Shown here: positions 24,930 through 51,534 of the stretch, in pieces
Position numbering within the stretch: position 1 is the first letter of the stretch
Layout of the letters: every line of letters starts with the position of its first letter
From: Megalonaias nervosa
Lineage: Eukaryota > Mollusca > Bivalvia > Unionida > Unionidae
Direction: 5' to 3'
DNA length: 64,000 bases
Assembly (NCBI GenBank): GCA_016617855.1
Contig: JAECUM010009842.1
Location: forward strand, 19,407-83,406
Made by a program: the position numbers and the translations under genes
The notes under the pieces: generated by a model
Database searches by the model: none
Told to the model about the DNA's origin: nothing
The model's input: the letters and a program-made list of their open reading frames with translations, nothing else

Positions 24930-25176
24930 AGCAGCAGAGGAGGTGAACAGACCACTTGTCTGAATTGTCATTTGTCTAAAAAATAAAGGTTCCTACGAAG
25001 GCTGAAAATAAGGTCGATAACGCTAAACCAGAACCTCTAACTGACCATGAGATTTTCTCTAATTGGTTTAGCTTATCTCGTTACTTTATCTCTGACTCTT
25101 TGTTTTTATTTTATGGTGTGTTTCGTTTACTCGCCTGATCACTCAATATTGGTCATTCACCTCCTCTGCTGCTGTA
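24930..25176. repeat. Left terminal inverted repeat, 247 bp
   Basis: Inverted copy of 40821-41067, matching over nearly its full length with scattered differences. Both ends of this single repeat carry the same sequence in opposite orientation: AGCAGCAGAGGAGGTGAAC at the outer end and its reverse complement at 25158-25175. The first gene starts 32 bp further in. Confidence 0.95.
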
Positions 25177-25207
25177 AATTAAACAGCCAGTATAAATATT
25201 ATCAATA

Positions 25208-26362
25208 ATGGTTGGAGAACCACACTCAGTTAGATTAGCTTGAGAGCGACTAGAGGCAATTAAAAATTATTTACCTGTCCGTGATTCTGTCAAGCAACAA
25301 CTACAATCACGTCAGGAATCTCAAGTTAAATTTGCAGAGCATACAAAACAATTATTTAAACCTATTACAGAAACAACTAAAGGTCTTCTTCCAATGTTAG
25401 AGAAAACCGCTGAAGCAACTGGAAAAATAGCAGAAAGAACAAAACAAACAGAAAGGATTTTACGTGGGCTTCCAGCTGATATAGCTGCTGCTCAACAAAT
25501 ACTTATACCTGAAGGCGCTGAAGCACCACTAGCCCCTAAACCAGCTGAATTAGCTATTACAAAAAAGACAAAAATAAAGATTGATCTGACTGATAGATTC
25601 ACTGAAGAAGCTTTAAAACATATTAAGGAAATTGACTAGGAGAATTTACATACTTTTGCTGTTGATACCTTCAAAAATAGAAAATCTTTTTTGAGTTCTG
25701 AACACGTTGAAAAACCTGTAGATCGTGAAGGCTGGTATAAATGGATATATCGCATAAACAGAGGAGTTGATCAAGTTAGAGATAATGATTCAGATTATAT
25801 TGAGTATAAACTAAATATAAATGAATACGCTAGATACTTAGAATTACAAAGAGAAGGTGTGAGGCAACAAAAACTAGAACAGAGACAAATAACACAAGAA
25901 GAAAGAGCACAGGCAAAACGAGCAATAGAATTAGAAAAGCAAATAAAAAGGGAAGAGAGAGAGCGTAAAAAACAAGAAACAGTAAAAAGACAACAACAGA
26001 AACCAAGTAAAGAAGAAGAATCTCAAGATTTTATCCCCAGTACAGAAGAATGGTGGAGACGATATGAAAAGAAAGAAAAAGAATCTCAGAAAGAATTTAA
26101 AGAATCAGGACCATCAGAACCTTCTACTGGAAGCGGTCTTACTACTCAAGGAAGTGGCCTTATTACTTGTCCTAATAACGTCCTTGCTGATGTTGATCGA
26201 TTAGAAATCCTCATTGGAGGAAAACGAGCTGGTAATAATTCCCCAGAAATAATTAATGAAGCAGCTGATATTTGTAAACAATTATTTACAGGCAGTATCA
26301 TGGATATTAATGTGTATCGGTCTCTCATTAATGAAATCACTGATGATTACCTCAGTGATTAA
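25208..26362 (+). pseudogene. Coiled-coil virion-associated protein (element gene 1), two nonsense mutations
   Basis: Read from ATG 25208, 384 codons with in-frame TGA at 25241 and TAG at 25637; no frameshift. The N-terminal third is helical and amphipathic (residues about 10-110), the middle is a highly charged coiled coil rich in Glu, Lys, Arg and Gln (about 215-275), and the C-terminal part has Gly-Ser-Gly-Leu repeats (GSGLTTQGSGL) and a more ordered tail ending DDYLSD. It is the first gene after the left repeat and overlaps nothing. Position and composition suggest a structural or core-associated protein; I do not recognise a named family. TGA falls at a place fitting Arg and TAG at a place fitting Gln. 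Confidence 0.7.
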
Positions 26363-26393
26363 GTATGTAATTAGATATAATGACTATAATAAG

Positions 26394-26840
26394 ATGATCA
26401 TACATAATACTCAACGTAGACCAACCATGGTCAGGGTAATAAATTCACGATTACCAGTATACAAAACGACCTACGGAGATGGACTAGGTGATGTTGTTCA
26501 GGGTCTGTTTAGAACGTTAGCCCCAAAAGCAATACCGATTGCAAAGCAACTGGGAATGAAAGCTATTGATGTTCATGATAAAGGTATTGGTGCTGTTGGT
26601 GATTTTGCTAGTAAAGCATTTTCAGCAATCAAGGATAGACTAGCACGATTAATACGACGAAAACCTCAGCCACCAGTGAAACTGGCCAGCACTGAAGTGA
26701 TGCCCGCAAATATTAGTAAAATAATAAATCAAGCTGCGAATCAAAAACTGGCAGAGTTGGCTGATGTATCACTATCAGAAAAAGAAAAAAATATAACCAC
26801 TAGTCTAATAGCTGGAAGTGGTCTTCGTGTTAGACGATAA
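26394..26840 (+). CDS. pVI/pX-like small basic virion protein (intact)
   Basis: Start at ATG 26394 (an ATG at 26427 is an alternative, giving VRVINSRLPVYKTTYGDG as N terminus); open to TAA at 26840, 148 codons. The motif RLPVYKTTYGDGLGDVVQGL begins the recognisable part, followed by an amphipathic helix region, a basic patch (RLARLIRRKPQPP) and a C-terminal GSGLRVRR tail. Small basic proteins with this layout sit just upstream of the major capsid gene in animal Polintons and have been compared with adenovirus pVI and pX, which line the inside of the capsid. It lies between the coiled-coil gene and the capsid gene, 14 bp from the latter. No break is seen. Confidence 0.65.
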   Translation: MIIHNTQRRPTMVRVINSRLPVYKTTYGDGLGDVVQGLFRTLAPKAIPIAKQLGMKAIDVHDKGIGAVGDFASKAFSAIKDRLARLIRRKPQPPVKLASTEVMPANISKIINQAANQKLAELADVSLSEKEKNITTSLIAGSGLRVRR

Positions 26841-26854
26841 TAAATATAATAAAG

Positions 26855-28229
26855 ATGTTCAAACGTATATCTGATCCCACATTTGACATGGACGCACCAG
26901 TTCTCAAGGATGAGTCTGTGCGCAATTATCAATATTATTCTTATGACGCACGACAGCCAAATCAGCGTGGACAAATCGAATTACAAGTTCAAGATACAAG
27001 TAGATATTTCTTACCCGCTGAAGCATTTATCGAGATCGAAGGTGAAATTTTAAAAACAGATAATACTGAATACGTCGCTGATGCTAATGTTGGTTTTGTT
27101 AATAATGGTGTTATGGCGTTGTTTGATAGCGCTACATACATGATTGACGGAAAAAATATTGAATCAATTCAGAAAGATGTTGACGTTGCCACGACAATAT
27201 TGGGTCTAGCAAGATACAGCAACGATTATTCAAGATCAGCTGGTCCGTCAATGATGTTTATGAAAGATACTTCTGACCACGCTGATATTGGACAGTATAA
27301 TATAAGACGACCAAGAAACTTCGCTGACACTGATGTGTGGCCGGTGGTTCATGGTTCTAATCCAAATTTTAATCTAGGATTTACAACACGTCGAGCAATG
27401 CTGAAAGGTGGAAGTAGAAGATTTTCATGTGCAATTCCACTTTCACATATCTTTGGATTTTGTAGAAATGTCAGAAAGGTCATTTTCGGAGCCAAGCACA
27501 CAGTTGTACTTGTACGAAAGGCTACAGATGATGATGCAATATAGCGACCTGCCTCTGTTGCTGATGCTGGTAAAATAATGCTGACAAAACTTTTATTGTG
27601 GATGCCAGTATTAACTCCAAAAATATCTGAAGATGAACGTTTATTATCTTTTATGAGTCAAGGTGGTAAATCAACGTTATCATGGTTGACGATGACCACA
27701 GATAGTGTTCAAAATACAATTAATGGTTTATTCACATGGCAAATAGCTTCTCAGCAAGGTGTATCTGCACGCGACATATATTTATTGCATTACAAGATGC
27801 TGCACGAGTAAACTCACAAACACAAAGTATAATGATATTTGACAAACTTGGTGTTTCTGAGGTTTCACTGAGAATAAATGGACATCAAGAACTAGCTGAA
27901 GATATATTATTAAATTTTGATCAAAATCATGTAGCACGTGCATATCATCGCTTGATGACATTTATAGGGCTTGATCAGAATATTGATTCTGGTTTATAAA
28001 TATCACAGATTTTACAACCTTATAACCAATTTATTACTTTTCATTAGAACATTTAGATTTAACCAGACAATCTGTTGTAGGTATACATTTTCGAGCTCGT
28101 GTTAACAGAGATGCTGGAGCTATTCCTAATTACAGAGCAATTGCCGTTATACTCAACGATAAATCAATGTTACTTGAAGGTGTTGGTGGACGAATGAAAG
28201 TTGTTGATGCTTCAGTAGAAAACATGTAA
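26855..28229 (+). pseudogene. Major capsid protein (double jelly-roll type), broken
   Basis: Start ATG 26855, end TAA 28227-28229, about 457 codons. The N-terminal part is collinear with the Polinton/adintovirus capsid family: early FDMDAPVL, the segment QVQDTSRYFLPAEAFIEIEG, VGFVNNGVMALFDSATYMI, then LSHIFGFCRN. The breaks are TAG at 27542-27544 after DDDAI, a one-base frameshift near 27770 and a second near 28000, with one further TAA possible near 28022. The last frame (28025-28229) includes VVGIHFRARVNRDAGAIPNY and ends MKVVDASVENM. It would form the hexameric capsomer of an icosahedral virion. Assignment rests on sequence resemblance, gene order and size; a structure prediction would settle it. 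Confidence 0.8.
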
Positions 28230-28266
28230 TTAGATCGTTTATGATATTATAATATCATATAATCAC

Positions 28267-28650
28267 GTTAGTGTTACCCTGACTCCTGGTCAGATTAAAA
28301 GGCTACAATCAGCATCAAAAGATAACTGAGGAATAAAAATATCACTAAAAAAAGAACAGATCGCAGGTGGTCAAAATAAATTATCTCTTACAGAACGTCA
28401 ATTCAGAAACTTCATTGAAGCCAAAAAATCAAATAAAGGTATAAAACTTAATCTTTCTGCGGGTGCCATTAAAGACATCACTAAGATGGGTGGTATATTT
28501 CCACTTCTTGCAGCTATACCAGCATTAATAGCCGCTGCAGCCCCAGCTGTTGCAAACGCAGCTGCATTAGGCTCTGTTGGAACTGCTGCTGGAATGGCAT
28601 TAAAGAAAGCAACCGGACAGGGAATCATGCACGCAGAAAGCTTAAAATAA
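28267..28650 (+). pseudogene. Minor virion protein with repeated LTxxQIxxL motifs and hydrophobic tail
   Basis: The frame begins near 28267 (VTLTPGQIKRLQSA); no clear ATG precedes it, so the start codon seems lost. TGA at 28327-28329 interrupts it at a place fitting Arg. Three degenerate motif copies (LTPGQIKRL, LKKEQI, LTERQFRNFIEAKKSNKGI) precede an Ala-rich hydrophobic segment (LLAAIPALIAAAAPAVANAA). This motif-plus-hydrophobic-tail family is common in animal Polinton-type elements and is probably a membrane-active internal capsid protein. After TAA at 28648 the same frame stays open to 28815 and encodes two GLRLPGT repeats (near GRGLRLPGT and GKGLRLPGT), so the original protein may have been longer. 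Confidence 0.6.
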
Positions 28651-28823
28651 AGATCACGGGCAAAACAACACGGAAGACATCTAAGAGCACCAAACGTGCC
28701 ACAGCCGGGCCATCTAAGATTATCAGGCCTAGTATACGGTCGCGGTCTAAGATTGCCAGGGACCCCATATTCATGGTACGGAAAGGGTCTAAGACTTCCC
28801 GGGACAGTTCATTGATTCTGCCC

Positions 28824-29222
28824 ATGTCCAATCTTGATTTACTTGATGCTGCTAAAAAATTAAAAATAAAAAACTTCAGAGGTGTTTTTATGTGTGATCA
28901 ATTACCAAAACAACCAGACAATATTGAAACTAGTATTATTAATCTCGATAAAAACTCTGGTCATGGCACTCACTGGGTTGCATATGCAATTGATCCACGT
29001 GGAATAATTTATTTTGATTCGTATGGGTTGGCGCCACCAAAAGAATTTTTAAAATATGTTAGCAGCATGCAAAGTATTCCAATCTGGTAATTAACTGATC
29101 CGCCAATATGTGGTCGTGAAGTACTCACTGTGCTTGATGCCATATCTTCGGCACCACCAAGAAAGCCACCTCATAAAGTCGTGCATGAATATACTACGTT
29201 GTCACATTTAAACAGACATTAG
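28824..29222 (+). pseudogene. Adenain-like cysteine protease, one nonsense mutation
   Basis: From ATG 28824 (PMSNLDLL context) to TAG 29222, 132 codons with TAA at 29088. Catalytic elements in order: His in GTHWVAY (about residue 48), the acidic residue in YFDSYG (about 66), and Cys in PPICGREV (about 96). The internal TAA lies seven codons before that Cys, exactly where adenain-family proteases have the oxyanion-hole Gln, so CAA to TAA explains it. In adenoviruses and Polintons this enzyme matures the capsid precursor proteins. It is shorter than adenovirus adenain (about 204 residues). It follows the minor virion gene and lies 8 bp before the fibre-like gene. An upstream ATG at 28773 is in frame but gives an atypical N terminus. 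Confidence 0.88.
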
Positions 29223-29230
29223 TAAATATA

Positions 29231-30283
29231 ATGGTAGATATTTACAGAAGATCTTCTCGCAGTAAAGCTCAGCAGCAAGGCGACTTATCTAAATATGCAA
29301 CTCTTGACCAGCTCAGAAATGAAATTGATGATTTATTAAACATTACAAGTGTGGATCAAAATGAAGTCGTTGTTTTTCAGGATAAACAAGGACGATTAAA
29401 GACAAGTAATATACAACTGCCAGATGTACTCATACGAATTCCTACCGCGGTTGTTAATAATATCGTTACTTTTACTGATCAAGGTAAAATACAAGATTCC
29501 GGTAAATCAGTTAACGATTATATCAAGAAAGCTGGTGATTCATTCTCAGGTAACATTATCATGAATCGAAATAAAATTATAGACCTTGGAAACACAACTG
29601 CAGATACGGACGCTGCAACGAAGAAATACGTCGACGATCAAGAATCTAAGTACGTATTAGCCAACGGTGGTATAATGCGTGCATTTCTCAACATGAATAA
29701 TAATGGTATTAATAATCTCAGAACACCAGAATTAGATTTTGATGCTGCAACGAAAAAATACGTCGATAAGGAAATTCCAGTAACAACTTCGTTAACAACA
29801 ATCAGTGATGAAATGACCGCATTTAGAACTGATTTTTCTAATCACGTACAAACGTTCTTAAATTTTCGTCGAAATATAAACAGATCTATTAATGAGTTTT
29901 TTGGAAGTCCACCAAATGTTGATATTAAACTCTCTGATGTTAACACGAAACTCAATGATATTGTCAGTGGAATCCCTAATATTGTTAGTAAAACTATTCT
30001 GATTAAAATTCCACACAAATAAATTAACAATATCGTGTACACAGTAGCATCAGGATCATCAACATGGACACCGTGCAATAACAGTCTCGAACATACCGCA
30101 GAAGTAACTGGGTTATACAGGCTGTCCATGTATGGTTTGGAAATTACTGTGGCCACTTCATCATCACCGAATGTACATCATAATCATCTACTGGTGATGC
30201 TAAATAAGAACACCAAAGAAACATTTACGTTGACATCAACAGAAATGCCCCCGAGACATTACTGTGGTGTCTGGAATTCGTAG
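29231..30283 (+). pseudogene. Fibre-like protein with phage tail-fibre repeats, one nonsense mutation
   Basis: ATG 29231; open for 263 codons to TAA 30020-30022, then in the same frame to TAG 30281-30283 (350 codons in all). Residues about 107-136 and 152-178 are two copies of the tail-fibre repeat that ends DAATKKYVD (NRNKIIDLGNTTADTDAATK and a second with FDAATKKYVDKE). The repeat is typical of trimeric bacteriophage tail fibres. The N-terminal part is helical; the part after the stop (VYTVASGSSTWTPC to HYCGVWNS) looks like a compact beta-rich head domain. TAA fits CAA. The likely role is a trimeric receptor-binding fibre on the capsid vertex; this is inference from repeat type and position between protease and penton-like gene. 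Confidence 0.78.
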
Positions 30284-30334
30284 CTGAAACTCCTCAATTA
30301 ATTACCTAATTAAATGACTACGTCATTAAGTATA

Positions 30335-30829
30335 ATGAATCAAACCCAAGGACCCCAGTCCCACATCGATGTTCAACGTCACAGATGCAATCAAATATGT
30401 AAATGTCAGATTGAATTAAAAAATATCATCGACAATTATATAGTAAAAGTAAAAAAATATCGCAGACATATGGTTGTCATTGATATAATTGTTTACTCAG
30501 TTTCTGCTATTACTGCTGGAGCCGGATTATTGTTATCAACAATAACAATGACAGCGCCTGCAGTTGTAACAATTGTCATTTCAACTTCAACAACTATCGC
30601 AGGCATTCTCAGTATTATCGCTAAGAAGATAGCTACATGTACAAATGATAAATTACACGAGTATATAATAAAATTACATACAGCAACAACAGCTTATTCT
30701 AAACTATCGTCATATATTTCGTCGTACCTCAGCGATGGTAAAATATCTGATGAGGAATTCGCAACGATAATGAAAACCTACGATGAAGTATTCCTTGACA
30801 ATAGCCAAGGCGAAAAAATGGAGAATTAA
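30335..30829 (+). CDS. Two-TM protein with EF-hand-like tail (intact)
   Basis: Open from ATG 30314 or, more likely, ATG 30335 (MNQTQGPQSH) to TAA 30829, about 164 codons. The N-terminal region has RHRCNQICKCQ, then two adjacent hydrophobic segments (IDIIVYSVSAITAGAGLLLS and VVTIVISTSTTIAGILSIIA, about residues 48-97), then helices and a C-terminal SDGKISDEEFATIM segment with an EF-hand-like acidic loop. Proteins of this shape recur in animal Polinton-type elements. The layout resembles SLATT-type two-TM modules, but that is only a resemblance. Function unknown; a role in membrane interaction or ion flux is possible. No break seen. Confidence 0.65.
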   Translation: MNQTQGPQSHIDVQRHRCNQICKCQIELKNIIDNYIVKVKKYRRHMVVIDIIVYSVSAITAGAGLLLSTITMTAPAVVTIVISTSTTIAGILSIIAKKIATCTNDKLHEYIIKLHTATTAYSKLSSYISSYLSDGKISDEEFATIMKTYDEVFLDNSQGEKMEN

Positions 30830-30861
30830 ATTCCTGATTTAAAATAATAACAATAATAATA

Positions 30862-32346
30862 ATGTCAACGTCCTTGACTGAGTCAAGAGAATTATTACAA
30901 CAGATCGTCACTAATACAGCACCGTCAAAAACTACAATGATATCATTAAGTTCGACCAATCCTGAGTTTAGCATTAACTTTACAACCACAATTCCAGCAA
31001 AAGAAATAGCCCTAGCACAATTGCGAGTTTATCATAGCTGGCCAAATATTAGATCAAAACCATTCGGTGGACTACAACCGAATAATTCATTAGTATTTGC
31101 AAATAAGAATAAGCGTGATGGAACTCCTGATTGGCAAGTAGTTAGTATTCCAATGGGCAGTTATCATATAGAACAGATCAATGATGAGTTTCAACGCAGA
31201 ATTAAATCTATTACAGGAAAAGAATCAAAAATAGCAATTACTGTTTACGAACCAATATTATCAGCAGCAATTGAAATAAATTCTCTTGATTATTCTGTAG
31301 ATATTTATCAAAGTTCGATTAGATCAGTATTAGGCTGGCCTGAAGTTGAACAAGTTTATAAAGGCCCACCAGAACCACAATGATCTGATTTCATTACAGA
31401 TAAAAAAATATTTATAAAAATCCCAGAATATAGAAAAAATGAATATCCATGGACAAGAGGAGAAAAATATATTAATAGAATTGAAACCTATTTTATAGAT
31501 GTATTTGATGGTAAAAAAGGTAAAGTAACAACAATTGATGTTGAATTAATTAAATCATACTCTAGTCCGATTAAATCTGAGCATGAATGTGTACTTAATG
31601 ATCTACGAAATTTATTTTCTAGCATCAACACTTCCTACAATGATGATTTAAAAAATCAGATAATTGAAACAATACAACATTTAAATCAAATTGCATCAGA
31701 TCTAGAATATATGAATAAGGTTATTGTTGACAGAGAAAAATTATTAATAAACCCATCGACAGATAAATACATAGTAAGTTATATAGTTAATGAAGACGGC
31801 TCAATTCAGCGTGTTCCACTTAATCATGTATTTAAAACTGTGTTTCTAAAATTTTATAAAATTACAGAAGAACAGCTACCAACATTTATAATTCCGGGAT
31901 TTAACTCTGATGAGCTAAAGAAAAATGTTAATGATTTTATTGATGAACACTTTAAAAGGATATGTGATTCATGGAGAAAATTAATCCCGCCACCAACCAT
32001 TCTCAAACATAATAATGATCCATACGGTGGAGGCTGCCATATCTCACCTGGTATCGTTAATATAACATCAACAACCGCAGTCAATCTAGTATGTGACGTA
32101 ATTGATGGCAGCTATCAAGTAGATCTTCCAAAGTCTAGCCAGGCCCAGCAAGGATATATATTATAGTCATTCAGTCCTCAAGCTCCACCTGGGTGGTTAA
32201 TTGTATCTGAGCCAATTAATCCCGTTTATCTACGTGTACATAATCCGCTATTATCAAGGATACATTTCAAACTTACTGACCAGACAGGACACGTTCTGGA
32301 TTTAAGAAATGAAGAATTAAATATTAATCTGTATGTACGCTCATAG
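30862..32346 (+). pseudogene. Penton-like minor capsid protein, two nonsense mutations
   Basis: ATG 30862 to TAG 32344-32346, 494 codons in one frame, with TGA at 31381 (fits Arg) and TAG at 32164 (fits Gln). The N-terminal domain has the typical order of the Polinton penton family: an early strand (FSINFTTTIPAKEIALAQL), YHSWPNI, NNSLVF, then IPMGSYHIEQINDEFQRRI. A long middle region carries charged helices. The C terminus has the family ending with FKLTDQTG, LDLRNEEL and NINLYVR. Such proteins occupy the fivefold vertices of the virion. It is the last gene of the plus-strand virion block. No frameshift is seen, so only two single-base changes separate it from an open frame. Confidence 0.8.
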
Positions 32347-33528
32347 AGCGTTATCATAGAATGTCTGAGTAAATATTCCCTCAAAATTGTTAAAATCTGA
32401 ATAAATAATCAAATTTCCTATAATAATATATGTTTGAGGCAATTGCACATATAATGAAGCGAGATAACTCTGCCGAGCAAAAACTCTCTGTAGAGTAAAT
32501 TAAGCGATTATCTCCCTTGTTACTACGTCGTACCTATAATACATTAAAAACGCGGTCGTAATATATGTATTTTAACCTAGCAAACGAAAACTTATACAGA
32601 AAATGTAATGTGCAATTATTTTATACAGTATATTTTATGAAGTGTGTTTGAAAATTGAAGTAAATCCATGCTACAGTTCTACAATAACTGATTTTATTCA
32701 CTACGCCAAGTGTGGCATGTTATATTGATCTGCATGTACACACCAGGTGTGGCATGTTATATTGATCTGCATGTGCTCTTCAACTTCCAGACTTCCTGTG
32801 TAGAATTATCATATTTTATGAAGTGTGTTTGGAAATTGAAGTAAATCTATGCTACAGTTTTACAATAATTGTGATTTTTATTCAATATACTGGTCATACA
32901 TAATTTACCTGTTTATTCAGCATCAGGTAACTATACAATAATTTCTTGAACGTGTATTTGTATGAATCAGAAAGTGGTGCAGTGTTATAACGTTGGATTA
33001 TCATACTGAGGACCGCGGTTCGATTCCTGTGGCTGACAAGTGTCGACAGTATTCGGAACGATGCCATTTTTCCTAATGGTTGGGGAGCGAAGCAAAGCTC
33101 CAAGGAATTCAATAACCTCTCATCATGTCAAACAATGTGGTGAGTGCATTTTGCACTTACCCCGGGGTTTGATTTGGTGGGGGTTATTGAATTTGCAATG
33201 CCTAGACAGTCCTCTGAATCTCTAAAGTTTCGTTTCGTTTAGTGATTCGCTGGGGGATGTGTCTATGCAAGCTCCATAAAATAATCAGTAGCATGTGTGA
33301 GCTCTCTACCTCATTGAAGAGTACCCCATAAAGATTGATTCAGAAAGAATGTTGCCAAAAAGAAAACTTTGTGGGGTGCCAATAATGGTCATAAGACAGA
33401 CATCATCATGCAAAGGACCCCTCAAAGGAACCACAGGCAATCAAGGGGCCCCAGTGACGGGTAACCGCTTATGATGCTACTGATTATTTTTTATATTTCT
33501 TTTTATACGGATTTAATTTAAACAAATA
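32347..33528. other. Non-coding stretch inside the element, nested repeats
   Basis: About 1.2 kb without genes, unlike the tightly packed rest of the element. It holds a 70-bp direct repeat (near 32627-32698 and 32808-32882, both containing GAAGTGTGTTTG), a 35-bp tandem pair (GTGTGGCATGTTATATTGAT near 32710 and 32747), a SINE-like block (about 32960-33242) with internal hairpins, and an inverted pair (AATAATCAGTAGCAT near 33281 and its complement near 33475). It is probably host repeat sequence inserted after integration. Confidence 0.6.
32960..33242 (+). mobile_element. Probable tRNA-derived SINE, family C
   Basis: The head resembles a tRNA: A-box-like GTGGTGCAGTGTTATAACG and B box GGTTCGATTCC about 35 bp later. 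The body contains short inverted segments (GGAGC/GCTCC near 33085-33102; GAATTCAATAACC near 33106 with GGTTATTGAATTTG near 33183). It ends in a TTTCG repeat tail (GTTTCGTTTCGTTTAG). No clear target duplication found, so the boundaries are approximate. Confidence 0.5.
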
Positions 33529-33538
33529 TTTATTATAT

Positions 33539-33793
33539 GTTGTTGTTGTTGTTGTGGGGCTTAATGCCATTTTTCAGCACACGATAGGCTATACATGGCG
33601 GCCAGTATCAATGGTGGAGGAAGAAACCGGGAAATCTGCAGAAAGAACTACCGACCCACGAGAAGCTACTGGCAAGCTTTCTCACATATCCACATTTGCC
33701 GAATCTTAGACTCGAACCCACGCAGACAGAGGTGAGATGGCAGTGATCCGTAACGAAGAGCGCTTTAGACCACTCGGCCACTCGGGGCCCCTG
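33539..33793 (-). mobile_element. tRNA-derived SINE, family B, inserted in the viral element, 10-bp target duplication
   Basis: On the minus strand it starts with a tRNA Ser/Leu-like head (GGCCGAGTGGTCTAAAGCGC as A box, GGGTTCGAGTC as B box) and ends with a (CAA)n tail. The direct repeat TTTATTATAT flanks it exactly at 33529-33538 and 33794-33803. It landed only a few bases upstream of the ATG at 33805, splitting the AT-rich promoter region of that gene. A diverged relative is at 13395-13625. Confidence 0.92.
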
Positions 33794-33804
33794 TTTATTA
33801 TATA

Positions 33805-34242
33805 ATGAACTACGAAAATATTAACAATATTATTTCTGCTATTGAAAAATTAAAACATGACGGAATAAAGATATCTGATAATCTTGATCCTCAGAAAATT
33901 ATGTGTGATTTTTAATCATTACAACAATGAAAATTTGAAAATAAATACACATTACCATCTAATTATAGATTCATGAAATTAATTTATCAATCTATGTTAG
34001 AATCCTTGGCAATGGTAAATGACACACAGGTGAAGCTATTTACACCTCTTGCACGTTCAGTCGAAAAAATAAGATCCGAATTGTCTCACGAGTACGAAAG
34101 AAAAAAGATTGTGAATAATCGTGTAATGCAGTGGAGAAAGATTTTGTCATTTGATTCTGTCAAAAGTGACACTGAGATCAATGACAATGAAGATGGACCT
34201 TTGACTGTGGTGATTGCTAAACAAAACACTTGGCAAAATTGA
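33805..34242 (+). pseudogene. Unrecognised element protein, two nonsense mutations
   Basis: From ATG 33805 to TGA 34240-34242, 145 codons in one frame, with TAA at 33913 and TGA at 33928. The product is mostly helical and charged; its C-terminal part (RSELSHEYERKKIVNNRV) looks like a coiled coil. TAA fits Gln and TGA fits Arg, the same C-to-T pattern as elsewhere in the element. No known family recognised. It sits at the start of the replication block, before the minus-strand HNH gene, and its upstream region was hit by the SINE at 33539-33793. Confidence 0.5.
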
Positions 34243-34316
34243 TAGAGTCGAACTATACAGTAAAAAAAATATATATTTATTCTGTTTTTTTTTTATTTTA
34301 AGTTAAGAGGACAGAG

Positions 34317-34820
34317 TTATCTGACATATTCGAATATTATCCGCTGATCATATTTTATTGAAAATGCAGATTTGTATGTTTTATTTGCGTCAAGTTGTAC
34401 CGATTGTGGATGTAGGCCAAAATATTTGGCAGCTGCATTTATTGATGGAAAAGTTATTTCTTGGCCAGTTTCTGTATTTACGGCCTTAATAGCTCTCTTT
34501 CCAAATATTTTACACTTTCCTGTATTTTCACGTGCAGAATTCTGACTCTGTGTAATAGCTTGCAAGTTACATAAATGATTATTTTTTGGATTTCCATCAA
34601 TATGATCAATTACAAGTCCATCTTGAATGACCCCATGAAAACATTCATAGATGAATCTAAGTGAGAAATAATTTTTATTTCCACTGGTATTAAATACAAA
34701 ATAACCAAATTTATCAACACTACCGACTGGTTTTTTCAATCGGCAGTTTCTGATCACACCATCACGAGATGCTTCATAATTTTTAATAATTGGATGTGCT
34801 ACAAACTCATTTTGCTTCAT
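34317..34820 (-). CDS. NUMOD4-HNH-NUMOD1 endonuclease (intact)
   Basis: Intact 167-codon frame, ATG at 34820. Order of parts: NUMOD4-like N terminus (IIKNYEASRDGVIRN, residues about 11-25), HNH core (CFHGVIQDGLVIDHIDGN then HLCNLQ, about 60-85; metal-binding DHIDGN and closing Asn visible) and NUMOD1-like DNA-binding part (VNTETGQEITFPSINAAAKY followed by FGLHPQSV, about 114-142). This architecture is that of free-standing homing endonucleases known from phages and large DNA viruses. It is not required for virion building and may be a selfish passenger within the element. It is convergent with the gene 33805-34242 and shares an AT-only leader before its ATG. Confidence 0.9.
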   Translation of the reverse strand: MKQNEFVAHPIIKNYEASRDGVIRNCRLKKPVGSVDKFGYFVFNTSGNKNYFSLRFIYECFHGVIQDGLVIDHIDGNPKNNHLCNLQAITQSQNSARENTGKCKIFGKRAIKAVNTETGQEITFPSINAAAKYFGLHPQSVQLDANKTYKSAFSIKYDQRIIFEYVR

Positions 34821-34862
34821 TAATATAATAATATTATTTGTCTAAATCATTATTTTGAAAAT

Positions 34863-35138
34863 CTAGCAAGATAATCTTCTGCGGTTTTTATAGGAGATTC
34901 GACATTTTTTTTTATCATAATATCGTTTTAGTTCTCTATATTTTTTACCACCGCATTTTAGACACAACTGAGTTTTTCCTCTGACTCCAACACCACACTG
35001 CACACACGGTTTTGGTCCTAGACTCCCATGTCTAACGCTTTGCATATGGTAGCCGCAGAATTCATTTACGCATGCTTTGTTACAAGGAGAAGTATATCCG
35101 ATCATAAGCCAATTACATCGATTCTTTGTTTGAATCAT
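34863..35138 (-). CDS. Small Cys-rich zinc-binding protein (intact)
   Basis: 91 codons, ATG at 35138 directly after a TATATATATATA run. Cys/His pattern: RCNWLMIGYTSPCNKACVNE, then FCGYHMQS, then CVQCGVGVRGKTQLCLKCGG, a treble-clef or double zinc-ribbon layout, followed by a basic Lys/Arg/Tyr tail. Proteins with the CxxH and CxxCG...CxxCG arrangement occur in large DNA viruses and Polinton-type elements, often without assigned function; DNA or RNA binding is likely. It is divergent from the polymerase gene, with only 53 bp between the two start codons. Confidence 0.65.
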   Translation of the reverse strand: MIQTKNRCNWLMIGYTSPCNKACVNEFCGYHMQSVRHGSLGPKPCVQCGVGVRGKTQLCLKCGGKKYRELKRYYDKKKCRISYKNRRRLSC

Positions 35139-35191
35139 TATATATATATACTAAAATTCAATTTAAATATATATTTGTCTTAATTATAATA
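35139..35191. promoter_or_regulatory. Divergent AT-only promoter between Cys-rich gene and polymerase
   Basis: The 53 bp between the two ATGs is almost only A and T, with TATATATATATA next to the minus-strand start and TTAATTATAATA directly before the plus-strand ATG. It fits the short leader pattern seen before most genes of the element. Confidence 0.5.
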
Positions 35192-38100
35192 ATGGAGGAA
35201 TTATCCACAATTGAACCTTCCGCCATCTCAGCGGGAGCTAGATTTGATCTTGACAGACTACCAAAATATAAATTTAGTTTTTCAATGCAAGATCTGGCTT
35301 TAACAAATGAGGATATAACCAAACGTATCCGTGAAGCTAAGAAGGAATTTCGTGACGATGGTACGGCTCATGTGTGGTCAACATTCAGAGTTGGAAATGT
35401 TGTCAGTACTATAATGAATGACAGACGTGGAAGAGAGATTATTAACCACCTTGATGTTCAAAGATATTTTATTTTAATAAAATTTATTGTAAGGACAGAC
35501 GACGACACTTGGATTATCCATGACAAACGTGATCCTGTACGCATGCAGTCAGGAAATAACATTGTTTTATTAAATAAAAATTCCAAACCCGAAATACTGA
35601 CTGGTATTGACAAACCATATTATGAATGAGCATATCCTGTGACTGCGGTTGTCTATGCAATATATCCGTTGAATAATAAACCTGACGTTAATGATCTCAA
35701 GCCAATGAGACTGTCAGTGTCAAGAATAAATTGTGTAGCTGAACGGGTTACAGAACACTTCACAAACGCGATACATGGTAATGGTTTAACAGATTTACGA
35801 CGTAAAAAGATAAATACCTGGGCAGAAGCAGTTAAAGATACTGGAGCATCTATTAAAGATGTTGCTGAGCTGGGAAAGATATTAAAATTTCCAATAACAG
35901 TGAAGACGTCAGCCAGAGATTTTGTATAAATCGAAATATGAATCAAGAGGAGCTTCGATAGATATTATTGATCATAACGCACATGCATGGACTTTGGCAG
36001 TAACAATATTTCCACGAGACAGAACAGTTAAATTTTATAATGGTCATATATTTGATTTTGTCAGGAATATCAGTAAAAGTGACCCTGTGTCTGTTTGGTT
36101 ATTTCAAAGTTCAGAATATGATTATCATGATCAGTTTGTACAGCCTAATGGTGATATTTATCGTACAGAATCTCTTCATGAAGAAATGAAAAATCTTGCA
36201 TTAAAATATACTTCTGACGATGTCAAGGTTGGACAATTACTAAATAATTTTACCGTTCCATCAGTTGCTGCTCGCTTTGCTCAGGAGAAAAATTCATGGA
36301 AACCGGCATGATCGGAATTTCTTGAAGATGTCCAGAAAAGTTGTATCGAATACGGACACGGTGGATTATGGAATACTAAATACGATTATAGCGACATTAT
36401 CTCAGTTGATATGGTAGCATGTTATCCTGAAAGTTTTCTTGGATACGGAGAGTGTTCTGAATACTTTAAGAGATTTGGACATCCATCACATGAGATGACC
36501 AGAGTTGCGATAAACGGACCCTTACCAGATTTTGACCTGACTGGATTTGCCTATATAGAATCATTTGAGTTTACGGAAAATCTCCATCCGATTACTTATG
36601 CTTTGTTTGGAAGACATTTTTCAGAAAAATGTTGGGTTCCAATAGTACTATTACGATATATGCTTGATGCTGGAATTTTAATATCATTGAAAGTAAATGA
36701 AGCAATTATATCGTATCGTCCATAGAAACAAGTTTGGCTACCAGAACCGGATAGATTTAATATTGATGATGTCAGGAGAGAATTTCCTGATCTTAACGAA
36801 GATGATTTTGTTAAAATTACTAATACATAAATGCAGGAAAGAAAGCGATGAGAAACTTGCAAAAGATCTTGGTAGAAAAATAATCGATAAATTTACACAA
36901 GGTAGTTCATACGATTATAAACAACACTGTACAAGATTAATTATTGACGATGCTGAACTCGATTTTGTGATTGCTGATGCAACAGAAAAAAACACATTTA
37001 TAAGTCGAAGTAATGCTTATTTATCAGACGGGACCAAACTAGATACAATTGTGAGTTATAACGATGGCGACTTACCGCAGTTTACTCATTTAAGATCTTC
37101 GATGCTAGCATATGTTTCGATAAATCTACTGTCGATGATAAATAGATTTCCTCGTTACGCTGTCAGAGTTGCTACGGATTCATTTTATATAAATAAAAAA
37201 TATGCGGATTTGTTAAAACCGCTACTCGGTAATGGTGAATGGGGATCATGGAGAATAAAACAAGAAAATATACTTAGTCATTCTGAATCTGCCGACATTG
37301 AAATTAAGGAAATATATTACAAAAATAATCAAATATCAGAATTGTCATCAGCACCATCTGTATATGATCCTGTGGCTAGACATAAGACTGTTTATCTTAA
37401 TGGATGTGGTGGTTCAGGTAAAACAACTCGTGCAATTAAATTATTCCTGAACAACCATTCAGATATAATTGTTTTGACACCGACACATAAACTCGCCAGA
37501 GAAATAAAAGAACGAAGAGTAAAATCATGTACATATCATAGTTTCTTCAGATGGTGCGGAGACACATGGACTCCTGAGCGAATGGGTGAGAAATATATAC
37601 CTAAATACATTATCTGGGACGAGATAGACACGGTACTGTTAGAAATATTAAAAATATTCCTTGAATGGTTATTGAATAAAAATACTGCTGTAATAATGTG
37701 TGGCGATCATGGTCAACCACCACCTTTCGTCGGTCAGTCTCCGCATGAATGGTTAAAATCATTTGTAGATTACTACGAAGAAATAATGATGATCATAGAG
37801 CTATTGATGAATCGCTGAAAGAGTTTAAAGATTAATCAGACTACAACCAGATAGAATACAATGTGAGATAATGCGTAAAGTAATTCCAGAAACTCCTGTG
37901 AATGATTTTTGGAATTTATGGAGACCAAATGATTTAATAGTTGCGAGTAGAAAAATAGTTCATGATGAACTGCAAGAGAAATTATTTCTTTTTCATAAAG
38001 AAAAATTTTCAGATCTACCCGTACCATTGTGTTGTCGCCCAGCAGATACTCGACGACAGAATATTGAAGTTGAAATTCCTGGTGGTGGGATACAAAACCT

Positions 38101-38645
38101 TGTGTTAAATGATTTTGTTTTTGTTGATGTTGTTGAGAGCGCATTAACGCCTTACGGAGTCAGGGACAAATCTCCGTGGACGTTAGGATATGCTATAACG
38201 ATTCACTCGTCACAAGGATTAACTATTTCTGATACAAATATCTGGATTGTCGATGATCGGATCGAATGGTCAAATTTAGTTTATCTTGCAGTATCTCAAG
38301 TCAGAAGAATATCTCTACACAGGATTATCATAGATTACGTGATAACTGAAGAAATCACCAGCGACTTTGTTGTCATAAAGAAAAAATTAGTGAGTTATAA
38401 GCAATGTGACAAAAAAAAATAAGCGTGACTTTGATTTTGATATTGAATTTATTATAACACTGAAGCAACAACAGAACAATCATTGTGCAAGTTGTAACAC
38501 AATAATGTTGTGGCAGTATTTGAATAATAATCCAAGACAGTTCACCGTGGATAGAATTAATAGTAGTCTTGGTCACACACGCGAAAATGTGATGCTAACG
38601 TGTCTTGAATGTAATCGACGTAGGGGTGCAAGTTTACATAAGTGA
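35192..38645 (+). pseudogene. DNA polymerase B fused to SF1 helicase and terminal HNH domain, broken
   Basis: Start ATG 35192 (MEELSTIEPS). Signs along the gene: polymerase motif A in DIISVDMVACYPESF (about 36390), a motif-B-like segment KIIDKFTQG (about 36880), motif C in RVATDSFYI (about 37170), then helicase Walker A LNGCGGSGKTTRA (about 37400), Walker B IIWDEIDTV (about 37610), motif III MCGDHGQPPPF (about 37700), motifs V/VI TIHSSQG and LAVSQVRR (about 38200-38310), and an HNH/zinc end: HCASC, FTVDRINSSLGHTREN, LTCLECNRRRG. No proofreading-exonuclease motif was recognised. Breaks: stops at 35627, 36309 and 36723 (TGA, TGA, TAG), frameshifts near 35920, 36830, 37780 and 37833, and one in the A-run near 38415. 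Known role: replication of the linear element from its repeat ends; the helicase would unwind ahead. Confidence 0.88.
38406..38645 (+). other. HNH/zinc domain at the polymerase C terminus
   Basis: Separated from the helicase only by a slip in an A9 run (about 38411-38419). Two CxxC pairs (HCASC and CLEC) flank the DRINSSLGHTRENV segment, the layout of an HNH nuclease with structural zinc. It is probably part of the fusion protein, because the helicase frame continues into it without a plausible stop or start. Alternatively it is a small separate gene starting at ATG 38406. Confidence 0.65.
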
Positions 38646-39614
38646 AGGTGGTGGTAATTGTGTGTCTTTAGGAATTGTTTGTAATTGTTCACATACAAAT
38701 CCACGTTGAGGAGCCATCGAATCTAGTCTGTAGATTGCAGGTCTACCTGTGGATCTTACCATGCTAGAAATTTTATGTGTAGTCACACTCCAGATAGGAT
38801 CAGTTGCTCTTTTTTTACCACCTTCAAGTTCACCAGGTTCATATAAATATCTTACAGTTACATTACCTAATACTGGTTGAGAGGAAGATTCACGTCGTTG
38901 TATTGGTACATGTTTCTTTGTAATTGCATTAGCAGGCTTCATAGAAGATGCACGAGTAATTTCATTATTCAGCGCAGTTATCACACTTGGTAACCTTGCA
39001 ACCCATTCACGAGATCTCTCCCCGGACTTAAAGTCAGTGGATATTTCCTTTGCATATTGATATCCAAATAACCGCTCAGCAAGTGTTCGATTAAATCATT
39101 CAGTGATTGCCTGATCACAATGAATTTCAGTGTGTCCTTGTCTGATTTTAACGCTATGTTTTTTTATCAACGATAATACTGCATCAAGAAATTCTTTACC
39201 AGGATCAACCTGTAATAGTTGTGGCCATTGCAAGGGTCCTCATTGATAAATTCGTTCAAATGCAGATGCAACTTCAGTTGCTGTCTTTGTTGACAATGGT
39301 TCTGCTTCTTTATATCTACTTGCAACGTCAACGACGGTTAACGCGTATTTATATGTGCGTGATTGATGTCTACCGGTTTTAATAGTATCATGTGGTAAAA
39401 ACAAAATATCTGCTTGATGAACTTCATTGGGAGTACTGACATCAAAATGTGCATACTGAATTGTTTTAGGTGGTGGTAGATAAATTTGCCATATTGCCTG
39501 TCATGCTAACCACGCTGCAGCAACAGCACATGAGACTTTTGCTGATTCAGCAAGTTTACTAATCGCTGCTCTCCCCCTCCAATATCCTTTTGGGCTATAA
39601 TAAACAGATTCCAT
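38634..39614 (-). pseudogene. Retroviral-type (rve) integrase, three nonsense mutations
   Basis: ATG 39614 to TAA 38634, 327 codons in one frame, with TGA at 39503, 39242 and 39098 (minus-strand positions of the first base). Catalytic DDE residues are visible: Asp in VHQADILFLPHD, Asp in LLQVDPGKEFLDAV, and Glu in DQAITE directly before the third TGA. The typical FNRTLAERLFGYQYA segment follows. The C-terminal part (NVTVRYLYEPGELEGGKKRA) is a beta-rich DNA- or chromatin-binding domain. The TGAs fall at WLA-stop-QAIW, IYQ-stop-GPL and TE-stop-FNR, all places where Arg fits. It inserts element DNA into host chromosomes. The gene converges with the polymerase gene, their ends overlapping by 12 bp. 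Confidence 0.93.
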
Positions 39615-39634
39615 TATAATAATCATATAATTAA

Positions 39635-40135
39635 TTACCCAGCTCCTAGCATTATTTTACCTTTCATAGCAGATTTTACTAGAAAACTAGTGAGTTTTTC
39701 TCTGAAAGATTTATCGGGTATAGAATTTAACGCATGAATTAATTTCACATCTCCGAGATGCCGTTGTTGTAAATCTTTACTTTTATACACAACATCACAC
39801 GCTTGATCAATCTTATTTATTGGATACTCTCCAGGTCGTGGTTGATCTTGATCATCAAGTCGGATATCAAGTCGAGTTCCAGGACCACAATAATTGTATC
39901 CAGGAAGATGTTTCTCACCAGGGTATTTAGTCCATGGAGCTCCTGGTAATTTCCCTAATGAAGCAGCGATATCTCCACCTTTGACTGACAAGTCAAGAGG
40001 AATAAATTTATATTTTTTTGTGCCACATTTTACACATTTGCCTGTAATTGCACGTCTTTTATTTTTTGTTATTATCGTTGTCAATCCACTGGTATGGGTT
40101 GGTGCTCTGCATCTAACACAATATATTAAATCCAT
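39635..40135 (-). CDS. Zinc-ribbon plus phospholipase A2-like protein (open, catalytic His missing)
   Basis: Open 166-codon frame, ATG 40135. The N-terminal zinc ribbon has CVRC (about residue 6) and CVKCG (about 34). The second domain has the PLA2 calcium-loop signature LPGYNYCGPGTRLDIRL (about 79-95), then the substrate helix INKIDQACDVVYKSKD. In parvovirus-type and related PLA2 the helix reads Cys-x-x-His-Asp-x-x-Tyr; here the Asp, the Tyr spacing and the Cys are present but the His is gone, as if about three codons were deleted in frame. Viral PLA2 domains breach endosomal membranes during entry. The C terminus ends with a hydrophobic/basic tail (SAMKGKIMLGAG). It is divergent from the packaging ATPase with a 12-bp gap. 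Confidence 0.8.
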   Translation of the reverse strand: MDLIYCVRCRAPTHTSGLTTIITKNKRRAITGKCVKCGTKKYKFIPLDLSVKGGDIAASLGKLPGAPWTKYPGEKHLPGYNYCGPGTRLDIRLDDQDQPRPGEYPINKIDQACDVVYKSKDLQQRHLGDVKLIHALNSIPDKSFREKLTSFLVKSAMKGKIMLGAG

Positions 40136-40147
40136 ATTATTTATTAT
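40136..40147. promoter_or_regulatory. Twelve-base divergent start region between PLA2 and ATPase genes
   Basis: The gap ATTATTTATTAT separates two opposed ATGs. Together with the flanking bases (CCATAT...ATATGG) it forms an imperfect palindrome. With so short a space, both transcripts must start inside the opposite gene or have nearly no leader. Confidence 0.45.
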
Positions 40148-40816
40148 ATGGATATAATTGACTTCTCAGCGGCACGAAAACAAGAACCAGTAAGGCACCA
40201 TCCAGCACTACCAGATTCTATTAGAATGATTATAATAGGCCCATCTGGATCTGGTAAGACACAATTATTACTTAATCTGATAATGCGATGGCTCAAGTGG
40301 AATAAATTATATTTAGTAGCACCACCTGTAGATGATCAACGATGTTATGAAGTACTTAAAGATTTTAATAAAAATGCGAAATTAATAGACGAAGACAGAA
40401 ATGATATTATTGATTTTATCACCGATATTGATGAAGCTCCATCTGTAGATGACCTCGATGGATTTATTAATAACCTCGTAGTGTATGATGATGTGATGCT
40501 GGACAAACAATCAAATCCAGCTCAGATATTTTCCAGAGGCAGATATAAAAATACTGATGTGATTTATGTTACTCAGCGATATACACAAATACCTAAAGTG
40601 ATCAGAGATAACTGCAATATTTTAGTTGTGTTTAATGGAGTAGATAATTATACTTTACAAAATATTTATTATACCTGGTGTTCAAGGGATATGGACATGA
40701 TTAAGTTTAAAAACTTCTTTTCAAAAGCACAAGCTGTTCCGTTCAGATTTATTACGATAAATTTACATGACCCAAGATCTAGGTATCATATAGGTCTGGA
40801 TAAAATCTTTGGTTAA
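40148..40816 (+). CDS. A32/FtsK-type genome-packaging ATPase (intact)
   Basis: Intact 222-codon frame ending four bases before the right terminal repeat. Walker A GPSGSGKT (residues 31-38), Walker B hydrophobic strand plus acidic pair in NLVVYDDVM (about 110-118), then a VIYVTQRYTQIPK segment (about 138-150) with the Gln of the sensor position. This is the size and layout of Polinton and adenovirus-like packaging ATPases of the A32/HerA-FtsK group, which drive viral DNA into preformed capsids. It is one of the few hallmark genes of the element without a break. Confidence 0.93.
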   Translation: MDIIDFSAARKQEPVRHHPALPDSIRMIIIGPSGSGKTQLLLNLIMRWLKWNKLYLVAPPVDDQRCYEVLKDFNKNAKLIDEDRNDIIDFITDIDEAPSVDDLDGFINNLVVYDDVMLDKQSNPAQIFSRGRYKNTDVIYVTQRYTQIPKVIRDNCNILVVFNGVDNYTLQNIYYTWCSRDMDMIKFKNFFSKAQAVPFRFITINLHDPRSRYHIGLDKIFG

Positions 40817-40820
40817 TTAC

Positions 40821-41067
40821 TACAGCAGCAGAGGAGGTGAACGACCAATATTGAGTGACCCGGCGAGTAAATGAAACACACCATAAAATAAAAACAAAGA
40901 GTCAGAGATAAAGTAACGAGATAAGCTAAACCAGTTAGAGAAAATTTCATGGTCAGTTAGAGGTTTTGGTTTAGCGGTATCGACCTTATTTTCAGCCTTC
41001 GTAGGAACCTTTATTTTTTAGACAAATGACAATTCAGAGAAGTGGTATGTTCACCTCCTCTGCTACT
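40821..41067. repeat. Right terminal inverted repeat, 247 bp
   Basis: Inverted partner of 24930-25176. Its inner end (AGCAGCAGAGGAGGTGAAC from 40825) and outer end (GTTCACCTCCTCTGCTACT to 41067) are themselves inverted copies. CCTTG follows at 41068-41072. Confidence 0.95.
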
Positions 41068-41218
41068 CCTTGCATGCTAAGTTCTTACTTATGTGGCTTC
41101 ACCTAATCACATTACAATCACTTGAAACTAGTTTGATAGCTCACACACTATAAGATTGATGCTCCTTTGTATAAACGGATCTAAAAAATGATAATTTTGG
41201 TGACAAAAAACATTTATA

Positions 41219-51530: not shown

Positions 51531-51534
51531 GTAA

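What the first reader, a model, noticed from the sequence alone, without database searches (positions are those of the whole stretch)
24930..41067. A 16-kb endogenous Polinton/adintovirus-like element with a full virion, replication and integration gene set
Terminal repeats, target duplication and genes for capsid, penton-like protein, protease, fibre-like protein, packaging ATPase, polymerase, integrase and PLA2 are all present in one unit. The set is richer than a minimal Polinton and combines adenovirus-like, parvovirus-like and phage-like modules.
Basis: partly seen in the sequence, partly recalled or inferred. Interest (0 to 1): 0.9.

Follow-up and report, generated by a model that had tools for sequence, protein, structure and literature searches.

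The report
Mussel virus-like transposon with polymerase-helicase replicase
A decayed 16-kb virus-like transposon sits in a genome that is likely that of a freshwater mussel and has well over a hundred relatives there; its copying gene fuses a predicted DNA polymerase to a helicase, a design that the papers we could read describe from protists and from parasites of giant viruses.

Summary
The element is real: 24930-41067, 247-nt terminal inverted repeats (96%), a 5-bp target duplication (CCTTG) and one gene set. It is one copy of a large family in a 2.19-Gb host assembly, likely a unionid mussel: 40 repeat, 150 ATPase and 110 replicase matches, each list cut off by the tool. Capsid, fibre-like, ATPase, integrase and (weakly) protease genes are supported; 'penton' is untested. 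Two points change the classification. (1) The polymerase is not the adintovirus/Polinton kind but part of one ~1,150-aa protein: vOTU-like region, PolB palm (motif C ATDS), PIF1-like helicase, C-terminal HNH. That is the Tlr1-type pPolB-S1H replicase known from polinton-like viruses, a ciliate element and transpovirons. Its relatives occur in the unionid Sinanodonta, a sea slug, a coral and mycorrhizal fungi. (2) Target duplications are exactly 5 bp in 5 of 7 paired copies, never 6. The PLA2-like protein lacks the usual catalytic motif in the 6 loci that span it. Capsid, penton-like, integrase and replicase genes are broken here, so this copy is a fossil; ATPase copies show dN/dS 0.20-0.33, so the family likely spread with that gene working. 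New variant of a known kind; no virion shown.

The parts
24925..24929 (.). left 5-bp target duplication CCTTG
24930..25176 (+). left terminal inverted repeat; itself an imperfect palindrome (outer ~18 nt repeated inverted at its inner end)
25244..26362 (+). charged ORF of unknown function, one in-frame stop
   Evidence: no match above cut-off
26256..26840 (+). ORF of unknown function, 194 aa, open
26855..27999 (+). double-jelly-roll-like major capsid gene, broken; only the stretches with matches are given
   Evidence: PF21738 in pieces 26855-27541 (above cut-off) and 27724-27996 (below); 29 relatives; 18 of 21 members of A4 match PF21738
28773..29090 (+). adenovirus-type cysteine protease, partial
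   Evidence: PF00770 E 0.0055 in the stop-to-stop frame 28485-29087, below Pfam cut-off
29231..30022 (+). fibre-like protein, 263 aa, open
   Evidence: PHROGs head-decoration (E 1.7e-9) and tail-fibre (3.3e-9) families over short stretches
30314..30829 (+). hydrophobic ORF, 171 aa, unknown
30862..32346 (+). penton-like/minor virion candidate, ~495 codons, two in-frame stops; assignment inferred, no family match
33539..33793 (-). later insertion with 10-bp target duplication TTTATTATAT, read by me as a tRNA-derived SINE; not part of the original element
   Evidence: neither ARAGORN nor Rfam at gathering score calls it
34317..34820 (-). free-standing HNH endonuclease, open
   Evidence: PF13392 E 6.8e-11; PHROG 59 E 6.1e-25
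34863..35138 (-). cysteine-rich zinc-ribbon-like ORF
   Evidence: weak DZR match, E 0.058
35192..38645 (+). replicase: vOTU-like region, pPolB palm (motifs A and C), PIF1-like SF1 helicase, C-terminal HNH; broken here by stops and frameshifts
38634..39500 (-). rve integrase pieces (core and C-terminal part)
   Evidence: PF00665 E 4.8e-5 for 39240-39500, below cut-off; no match for 38634-39095
39635..40135 (-). DUF5679 zinc-ribbon plus PLA2-like domain, open; canonical HDxxY absent
40148..40816 (+). packaging ATPase (A32-like), 222 aa, intact
40821..41067 (-). right terminal inverted repeat
41068..41072 (.). right 5-bp target duplication CCTTG

Best explanation
This is a decayed copy of a large family of virus-like integrated elements, in what is likely a freshwater-mussel genome, whose replicase joins a predicted protein-primed B-family DNA polymerase palm to a superfamily-1 helicase and whose integrase likely makes 5-bp target duplications. 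Shown: terminal repeats, 5-bp duplications in 5 of 7 paired copies, the gene set by family matches, the fusion in one ORF in three other copies, many copies, low dN/dS of the ATPase. Inferred: the replicase would copy the linear element from its ends by protein priming, with the helicase opening the strand in place of a proofreading exonuclease domain. The A32-like ATPase would package DNA into a double-jelly-roll capsid matured by the adenovirus-type protease. The rve integrase would insert the linear DNA into new sites. The family would have spread by this cycle, within the germ line and possibly between cells or hosts as virions. The window's copy later lost its capsid, penton-like, integrase and replicase frames and received a small insertion. 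The fibre-like and PLA2-like proteins would serve attachment and membrane passage, the latter doubtfully, as its catalytic motif is changed.
For: TIRs; TSD of exactly 5 bp in 5 of 7 pairs against 2 of 371 unpaired end combinations, one of these two a contig with the same flank and identical repeat. Family size, lower bounds with the window's own copy counted: 40 TIRs, 150 ATPases at 91-100%, 110 palm-helicase matches at 81-100%. Linkage: in the 8 search loci that hold the ATPase (the window's included, two probably haplotypes of one insertion) a PLA2-like piece lies beside it in 8 and an integrase piece in 7; the eighth, L011, has the HNH and zinc-ribbon genes there instead. Fusion: palm motif C (ATDS) and helicase in one frame in relatives; 12 of 110 host-genome matches lie in frames of 1,000 aa or more, 9 of them without a stop in the match; 3 of these 9 read as they stand give ORFs of 1,166, 1,149 and 1,138 aa (the last cut at the edge of the stretch fetched) with motif C and Walker A in one order, an HNH-like end in two and part of it in the third. 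Helicase profile matches PIF1 and RecD chains, best E 3.7e-6. Published description of Tlr1-like pPolB-S1H, with changed first Asp of motif C and C-terminal HNH or GIY-YIG: PMC11071308 section 10. Virion genes. ATPase dN/dS 0.33 over 78 pairs from 13 of 20 TIR-chosen copies, 0.20 over 28 intact-only pairs. Host: best named relatives Sinanodonta woodiana and Potamilus streckersoni, both Unionidae; replicase tree puts the window and both Sinanodonta rows in one set of 7 rows, 100/100.
Against: No Pfam polymerase family matches the palm, also not in the three long ORFs, so the palm rests on motifs and likeness to the published type; one of the three ORFs lacks the Asp of motif A. A structure prediction of the palm-helicase could not be completed, and the capsid model was poor (pLDDT 42); the capsid profile finds no PDB chain. 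Integrase and protease matches are below Pfam cut-offs. Pattern scans of IMG/VR viral contigs found no relative of ATPase or helicase, so no sign of free virions there. Two of 7 TIR pairs have no matching flanks. 12 of 20 TIR-chosen ATPases are not intact.
Confidence: 0.78

Rival explanations
1. It is an ordinary adintovirus/Polinton (Maverick) with a normal protein-primed PolB that happens to sit next to a helicase gene.
For: rve integrase, adenovirus-type protease, DJR-like capsid, A32-like ATPase, TIRs; published Polintons also carry PLA2-type lipases (PMC4642659, passages); adintovirus PolB has an OTU-like domain too (PMC11071296, passages).
Against: Palm and helicase are in one frame in the window piece, in Sinanodonta and other relatives and in three ORFs of about 1,140-1,166 aa; motif C is ATDS, changed at the first Asp as in Tlr1-like proteins; TSD 5 bp, not the 6 bp reported for vertebrate Mavericks (PMC8097293, passages), a weaker point since PLVs are reported with 5-6 bp (PMC12220804, passages).
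Confidence: 0.1
2. The elements no longer make virions: a self-synthesising transposon that keeps only replication and integration, the capsid genes being relics.
For: Capsid and penton-like frames broken in the window; no related viral contigs in pattern scans; many copies in one genome.
Against: The packaging ATPase, a virion-assembly gene, has dN/dS of 0.20-0.33 between copies, and 134 of the 150 best-scoring ATPase copies have no stop (my count, window included; this sample favours intact copies); capsid relatives occur in other genomes and on unnamed contigs.
Confidence: 0.3
3. The 247-nt repeats are independent small palindromic transposons (MITEs) that by chance flank viral genes.
For: Each repeat is itself an imperfect palindrome (z -6.2 and -3.95) with its outer end repeated inverted at its inner end.
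Against: The 39 repeat copies that could be judged continue into the element's left (18) or right (21) inner sequence, one of them (L051) judged on 46 nt only; the 5-bp duplication spans the whole element, not the single repeat. Only the 40 best of 4,362 candidates were scored, so diverged solitary repeats are not excluded.
Confidence: 0.04

Closest known systems
Tlr1 element of Tetrahymena and Tlr1-like (pPolB-S1H) polinton-like viruses
   Same: Fused pPolB palm and superfamily-1 helicase with C-terminal homing-endonuclease domain, changed first Asp of motif C, rve integrase (Tlr1), ATPase, DJR capsid (PMC11071308 section 10; PMC4028283 passages; PMC4642659 passages).
   Different: Likely animal host; HNH rather than Tlr1's GIY-YIG (PMC12721341 passages); an adenovirus-type protease (weak match), which Tlr and the 2015 PLVs lack; PLA2-like and fibre-like genes.
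Polintons/Mavericks (animal)
   Same: Size ~16 kb, TIRs, rve integrase, A32-like ATPase, protease, DJR capsid, PLA2-type lipase in some.
   Different: Replicase is a helicase fusion; TSD 5 bp instead of the 6 bp of vertebrate Mavericks (PMC8097293 passages).
Adintoviruses
   Same: Animal-associated, rve integrase, protease, capsid set (PMC11071296 passages).
   Different: Defined by distinctive PolB with OTU-like domain and BLASTp-recognisable hexon; here the polymerase is fused to a helicase; hexon not compared with reference adintoviruses (defining paper PMC8502044 not held).
OmPLV of Oxyrrhis marina
   Same: Fusion of pPolB and SF1 helicase in an endogenous polinton-like virus (PMC12721341 passages).
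   Different: There the helicase is N-terminal and the exonuclease is kept; here polymerase first, helicase second.
Transpovirons
   Same: Tlr1-like helicase protein (PMC11071308 passages).
   Different: Plasmid-like, capsidless parasites of giant viruses (passages).

Membership tests
Tlr1-type (pPolB-S1H) polinton-like elements | one protein with pPolB palm followed by superfamily-1 helicase | tested here: met
   palm by motifs A and C only, no fold test
Tlr1-type (pPolB-S1H) polinton-like elements | exonuclease domain absent | tested here: inconclusive
   about 140 residues lie between the putative vOTU histidine and motif A in L060, little room (inference); no profile test possible, Pfam sees no polymerase at all
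Tlr1-type (pPolB-S1H) polinton-like elements | vOTU upstream of palm with Cys and His | tested here: inconclusive
   INCV and HNAHAW present in the three ORFs; motif reading is mine, no model or family match
Tlr1-type (pPolB-S1H) polinton-like elements | DJR capsid and A32/FtsK-like ATPase | tested here: met
   (capsid by profile; AlphaFold model poor)
Polinton/Maverick | pPolB of the usual kind, not joined to a helicase | tested here: not met
   fused to SF1 helicase
Polinton/Maverick | rve integrase | tested here: met
   PF00665 E 4.8e-5, below Pfam cut-off
Polinton/Maverick | 6-bp target duplication (typical rather than strictly defining) | tested here: not met
   exactly 5 bp in 5 of 7 pairs, none in the other 2, 6 bp in 0 of 7
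Adintovirus | distinctive PolB with N-terminal OTU-like domain | tested here: inconclusive
   OTU-like motifs read by me, but the polymerase is fused to a helicase; not compared with reference adintovirus PolB
Adintovirus | hexon recognisable by BLASTp to reference adintoviruses | not tested
   no reference proteins at hand
Adintovirus | integrase with C-terminal chromodomain | tested here: inconclusive
   C-terminal piece 38634-39095 has no Pfam match at E up to 1; a broken piece, not examined otherwise
Parvovirus-type PLA2 | catalytic HDxxY with calcium loop | tested here: not met
   calcium-loop-like stretch kept, CDVxY in place of HDxxY in 6 of 6 loci that span the site, window included and two probably haplotypes of one insertion; HDxxY is recalled

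The most novel reading that the evidence does not exclude
Animals carry their own class of Tlr1-type viruses: a lineage with a polymerase-helicase-HNH replicase, a 5-bp integrase and palindromic terminal repeats, living in molluscs, corals and mycorrhizal fungi, that still makes virions in freshwater mussels and has expanded there to hundreds or thousands of copies.
Probability: 0.3. Interest if true: 0.8.

Novelty: new variant of a known kind. Interest (0 to 1): 0.55.

Why it matters
The papers seen here place pPolB-S1H replicases in protist polinton-like viruses, a ciliate element and giant-virus transpovirons. The same replicase in a large multi-copy family of a likely animal host, with relatives in named records of a unionid mussel, a sea slug, a coral and mycorrhizal fungi, would extend that branch to multicellular hosts. 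It is joined here with a protease that the published Tlr1 and early PLVs lack. It offers a host with many copies, some with long open frames, in which the old question whether such elements still make virions can be examined by looking for particles and transcripts.

Tried and rejected
Adintovirus label: rejected for the replicase fusion, with the 5-bp TSD as a lesser point. MITE reading of the repeats: rejected (39 of 39 judgeable copies belong to the element). Covariation in the palindromic repeats as evidence of a selected hairpin: not found (2 two-sided pairs against 0-3 in slid controls), so the palindrome is a sequence fact without shown function. Viral-contig scans found nothing; the one GTDB hit (L001, 3.1 kb, labelled a Diapherotrites MAG) has a relative of the replicase broken by stops and adds little. 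Eight flank ORFs and one in the insertion gave no Pfam match above cut-off, so no host gene is named. Capsid fold: AlphaFold model at pLDDT 42 not used, no fold search run. PDB profile search with the capsid alignment: no match. score only the best candidates. In one search, 7 of 20 ATPase copies whose alignment fell into several pieces were left out of dN/dS. In the tree I used 27 of 81 replicase relatives plus the window; the tool warns that long branches meet.

Literature: papers that bear on the claim but are not held are PMC8502044 (adintoviruses) and PMC5499653 (SF1 helicase fusion 2016). The statement that animal Tlr1-type elements were not found in print rests on searches and on passages of the papers cited. 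Only section 10 of PMC11071308 was read as a section; other papers were seen as passages, abstract starts or listings.
Full report
What was checked. The window holds one pair of long inverted repeats, 24930-25176 and 40821-41067 (248 nt aligned, 96%), directly flanked by CCTTG on both sides (24925-24929, 41068-41072). The element from end to end is 16,138 bp. The host assembly (G000, 2.19 Gb, 54,709 contigs) contains the window at C8286:19407-83406.

Terminal repeats. The repeat finds 40 copies at 94-100%, the window's two ends included (4,362 candidates, only 40 scored). I fetched all 40 with up to about 1 kb inward. Of these, 39 run into sequence like the window element's left (18) or right (21) inner end, L051 judged on 46 nt only; the other (L050) was fetched too short to judge. 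Seven contigs hold a left and a right end, 12-16 kb apart. In 5 of 7 the flanks share exactly 5 bp (CCTTG, AGTTG, CCAAT, CAACT, AAGGG), in 2 none, in none 6. Among 371 other left-right combinations, 2 match at 5 bp, one of them a second contig with the same flank and an identical repeat, so probably the other haplotype. The two arms of the window's element differ at 11 of 246 positions; in the other four with duplications at 4 to 6. The window's copy is thus the oldest of these five, if all evolve alike (inference). Vertebrate Mavericks have 6-bp duplications (PMC8097293, passages); rve integrases typically give 6 bp, while PLVs are reported with 5-6 bp (PMC12220804, passages).

The repeat is an imperfect palindrome: its outer ~18 nt recur inverted at its inner end. 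Both arms fold better than all 200 shuffles (z -6.2; -3.95), and 38 of 39 copies keep 16-19 of the 20 outer bases complementary to the inner end (L031 keeps 13). No covariation supports a selected hairpin. Its use is unknown.

Linkage in other copies. Of the 8 search loci that hold the ATPase (L003, L006, L008-L013; L010 is the window, L008 and L009 probably haplotypes of one insertion), all 8 have a PLA2-like piece beside it and 7 an integrase piece; L011 has the HNH and zinc-ribbon genes there instead.

Virion and packaging genes. ATPase 40148-40816 is open, Pox_A32 E 8e-12; of 46 relatives 44 lie on contigs up to 3.1 kb without a named organism and 2 in Sinanodonta woodiana. The capsid gene at 26855-27999 gives PF21738 (double jelly roll-like) in two pieces, and 29 relatives, the named organisms being Sinanodonta and Potamilus streckersoni; 18 of 21 sequences in alignment A4 match PF21738. 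The AlphaFold model of a relative was poor (pLDDT 42), so the jelly roll rests on the profile. The protease match is weak (E 0.0055). The fibre-like protein matches phage decoration and tail-fibre families, best E 1.7e-9, over short stretches. The penton-like frame 30862-32346 has two in-frame stops and no family match; 'penton' is inferred from position and composition only.

PLA2-like protein. 39635-40135 (minus) is open and joins a DUF5679 zinc-ribbon domain to Phospholip_A2_4 (E 1.5e-9 and 9e-7). The calcium-loop-like stretch is kept, but the window and five other loci that span the site all read CDVxY instead of HDxxY (HDxxY recalled from parvovirus PLA2; L008 and L009 probably haplotypes). 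Catalysis is therefore doubtful.

Replicase. In the window, pieces in three frames cover 35192-38645. The longest (36697-37818) carries AAA_19 (E 4e-11), preceded by a stretch with VRVATDS. 81 relatives were found: Sinanodonta (58% over 86% of the query), Elysia marginata, Desmophyllum pertusum, the fungi Paraglomus, Acaulospora and Racocetra, lucinid-symbiont MAGs (likely clam DNA, inferred) and many unnamed contigs. Alignment A2 (13 rows) shows ATDS and the helicase in one chain and an HNH-like end in three rows. The helicase profile matches PIF1 and RecD chains (best E 3.7e-6 for 5ftb; chains named PIF1 at 0.003-0.005). The host genome holds at least 110 matches at 81-100%, the window's own included; 12 of 110 sit in open frames of 1,000 aa or more, 9 of these without a stop in the match. 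Three of the 9 read as they stand give 1,166, 1,149 and 1,138 aa (the last cut at the edge of the fetched stretch) with ATDS at ~650-690 and GSGKT at ~730-770, motif A (ACYP) at ~406-438 (one of the three lacks its leading Asp), and in two the HNH-like end (the third stops inside it). Upstream, INCV and HNAHAW could be the Cys and His of a viral OTU protease (my reading). This is the architecture that PMC11071308 (a preprint; section 10) describes for Tlr1-like helicases: middle TP-like region, vOTU, palm with changed first Asp of motif C, S1H, and C-terminal GIY-YIG or HNH.

Tree. With 27 of the 81 relatives plus the window the window groups with two Sinanodonta rows and unnamed sequences (7 rows, 100/100), apart from a fungal set (4 rows, one unnamed, 100/100) and from the sea slug, coral and lucinid rows. 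The window's branch is long, as expected of a decayed copy, and the tool warns about long branches.

Selection. At 20 right ends chosen by their repeat, the ATPase is intact in 8; the 13 with one alignment piece gave 78 pairs with mean dN 0.063, dS 0.191, ratio 0.33; intact only, 28 pairs, 0.20. Two of the 20 (L020, L021) look like haplotypes of one insertion. In the protein search, 134 of 150 top copies have no stop (my count), but that sample is chosen for protein similarity.

Mechanism. Shown: ends, 5-bp duplications, gene set by family matches, one-ORF fusion, copy number, low dN/dS of the ATPase. Inferred: end-to-end protein-primed copying by the fused replicase, packaging by the ATPase into a jelly-roll capsid, insertion by the rve integrase. 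Whether capsids still form is open.

Known or new. The kind is known; the combination (likely animal host, Tlr1-type replicase with HNH, protease, PLA2-like and fibre-like genes, 5-bp duplications, palindromic repeats) was not found in the papers searched, with two central papers not held. PLA2-type lipases in Polintons were already noted (PMC4642659, passages). Hence: new variant of a known kind.

Noticed in passing
window 33539-33793: Insertion of about 255 bp inside the element with a perfect 10-bp target duplication TTTATTATAT; I read it as a tRNA-derived SINE, no tool calls it one.
   Followed up: partly
window 32630-32871 and 32703-32774: Short direct repeats (61 nt, spacing 181; 35 nt, spacing 37) and a tRNA-like stretch near 32985 by eye, perhaps further host insertions between the penton-like gene and the HNH gene.
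   Followed up: no
window 24930-25176 and 40821-41067: Each terminal repeat is an imperfect palindrome whose outer end recurs inverted at its inner end; kept in 38 of 39 copies, no covariation.
   Followed up: partly
window 39635-40135: DUF5679 zinc ribbon fused to a PLA2-like domain with CDVxY in place of HDxxY in the six loci that span it.
   Followed up: partly
L011: An ATPase copy with HNH and zinc-ribbon genes, not an integrase, beside the PLA2-like gene: a second gene order in the family.
   Followed up: no
window 63599-64000 and 51534-52278: Host tandem arrays (73-bp unit, 99% alike; 41/82-bp unit).
   Followed up: no
L020 and L021: Two contigs of the assembly carry the same right flank and identical repeat, probably two haplotypes of one insertion.
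   Followed up: no
L001: A relative of the replicase, broken by stops, lies on a 3.1-kb contig labelled as a Diapherotrites archaeon MAG, probably a mis-binned contig.
   Followed up: no
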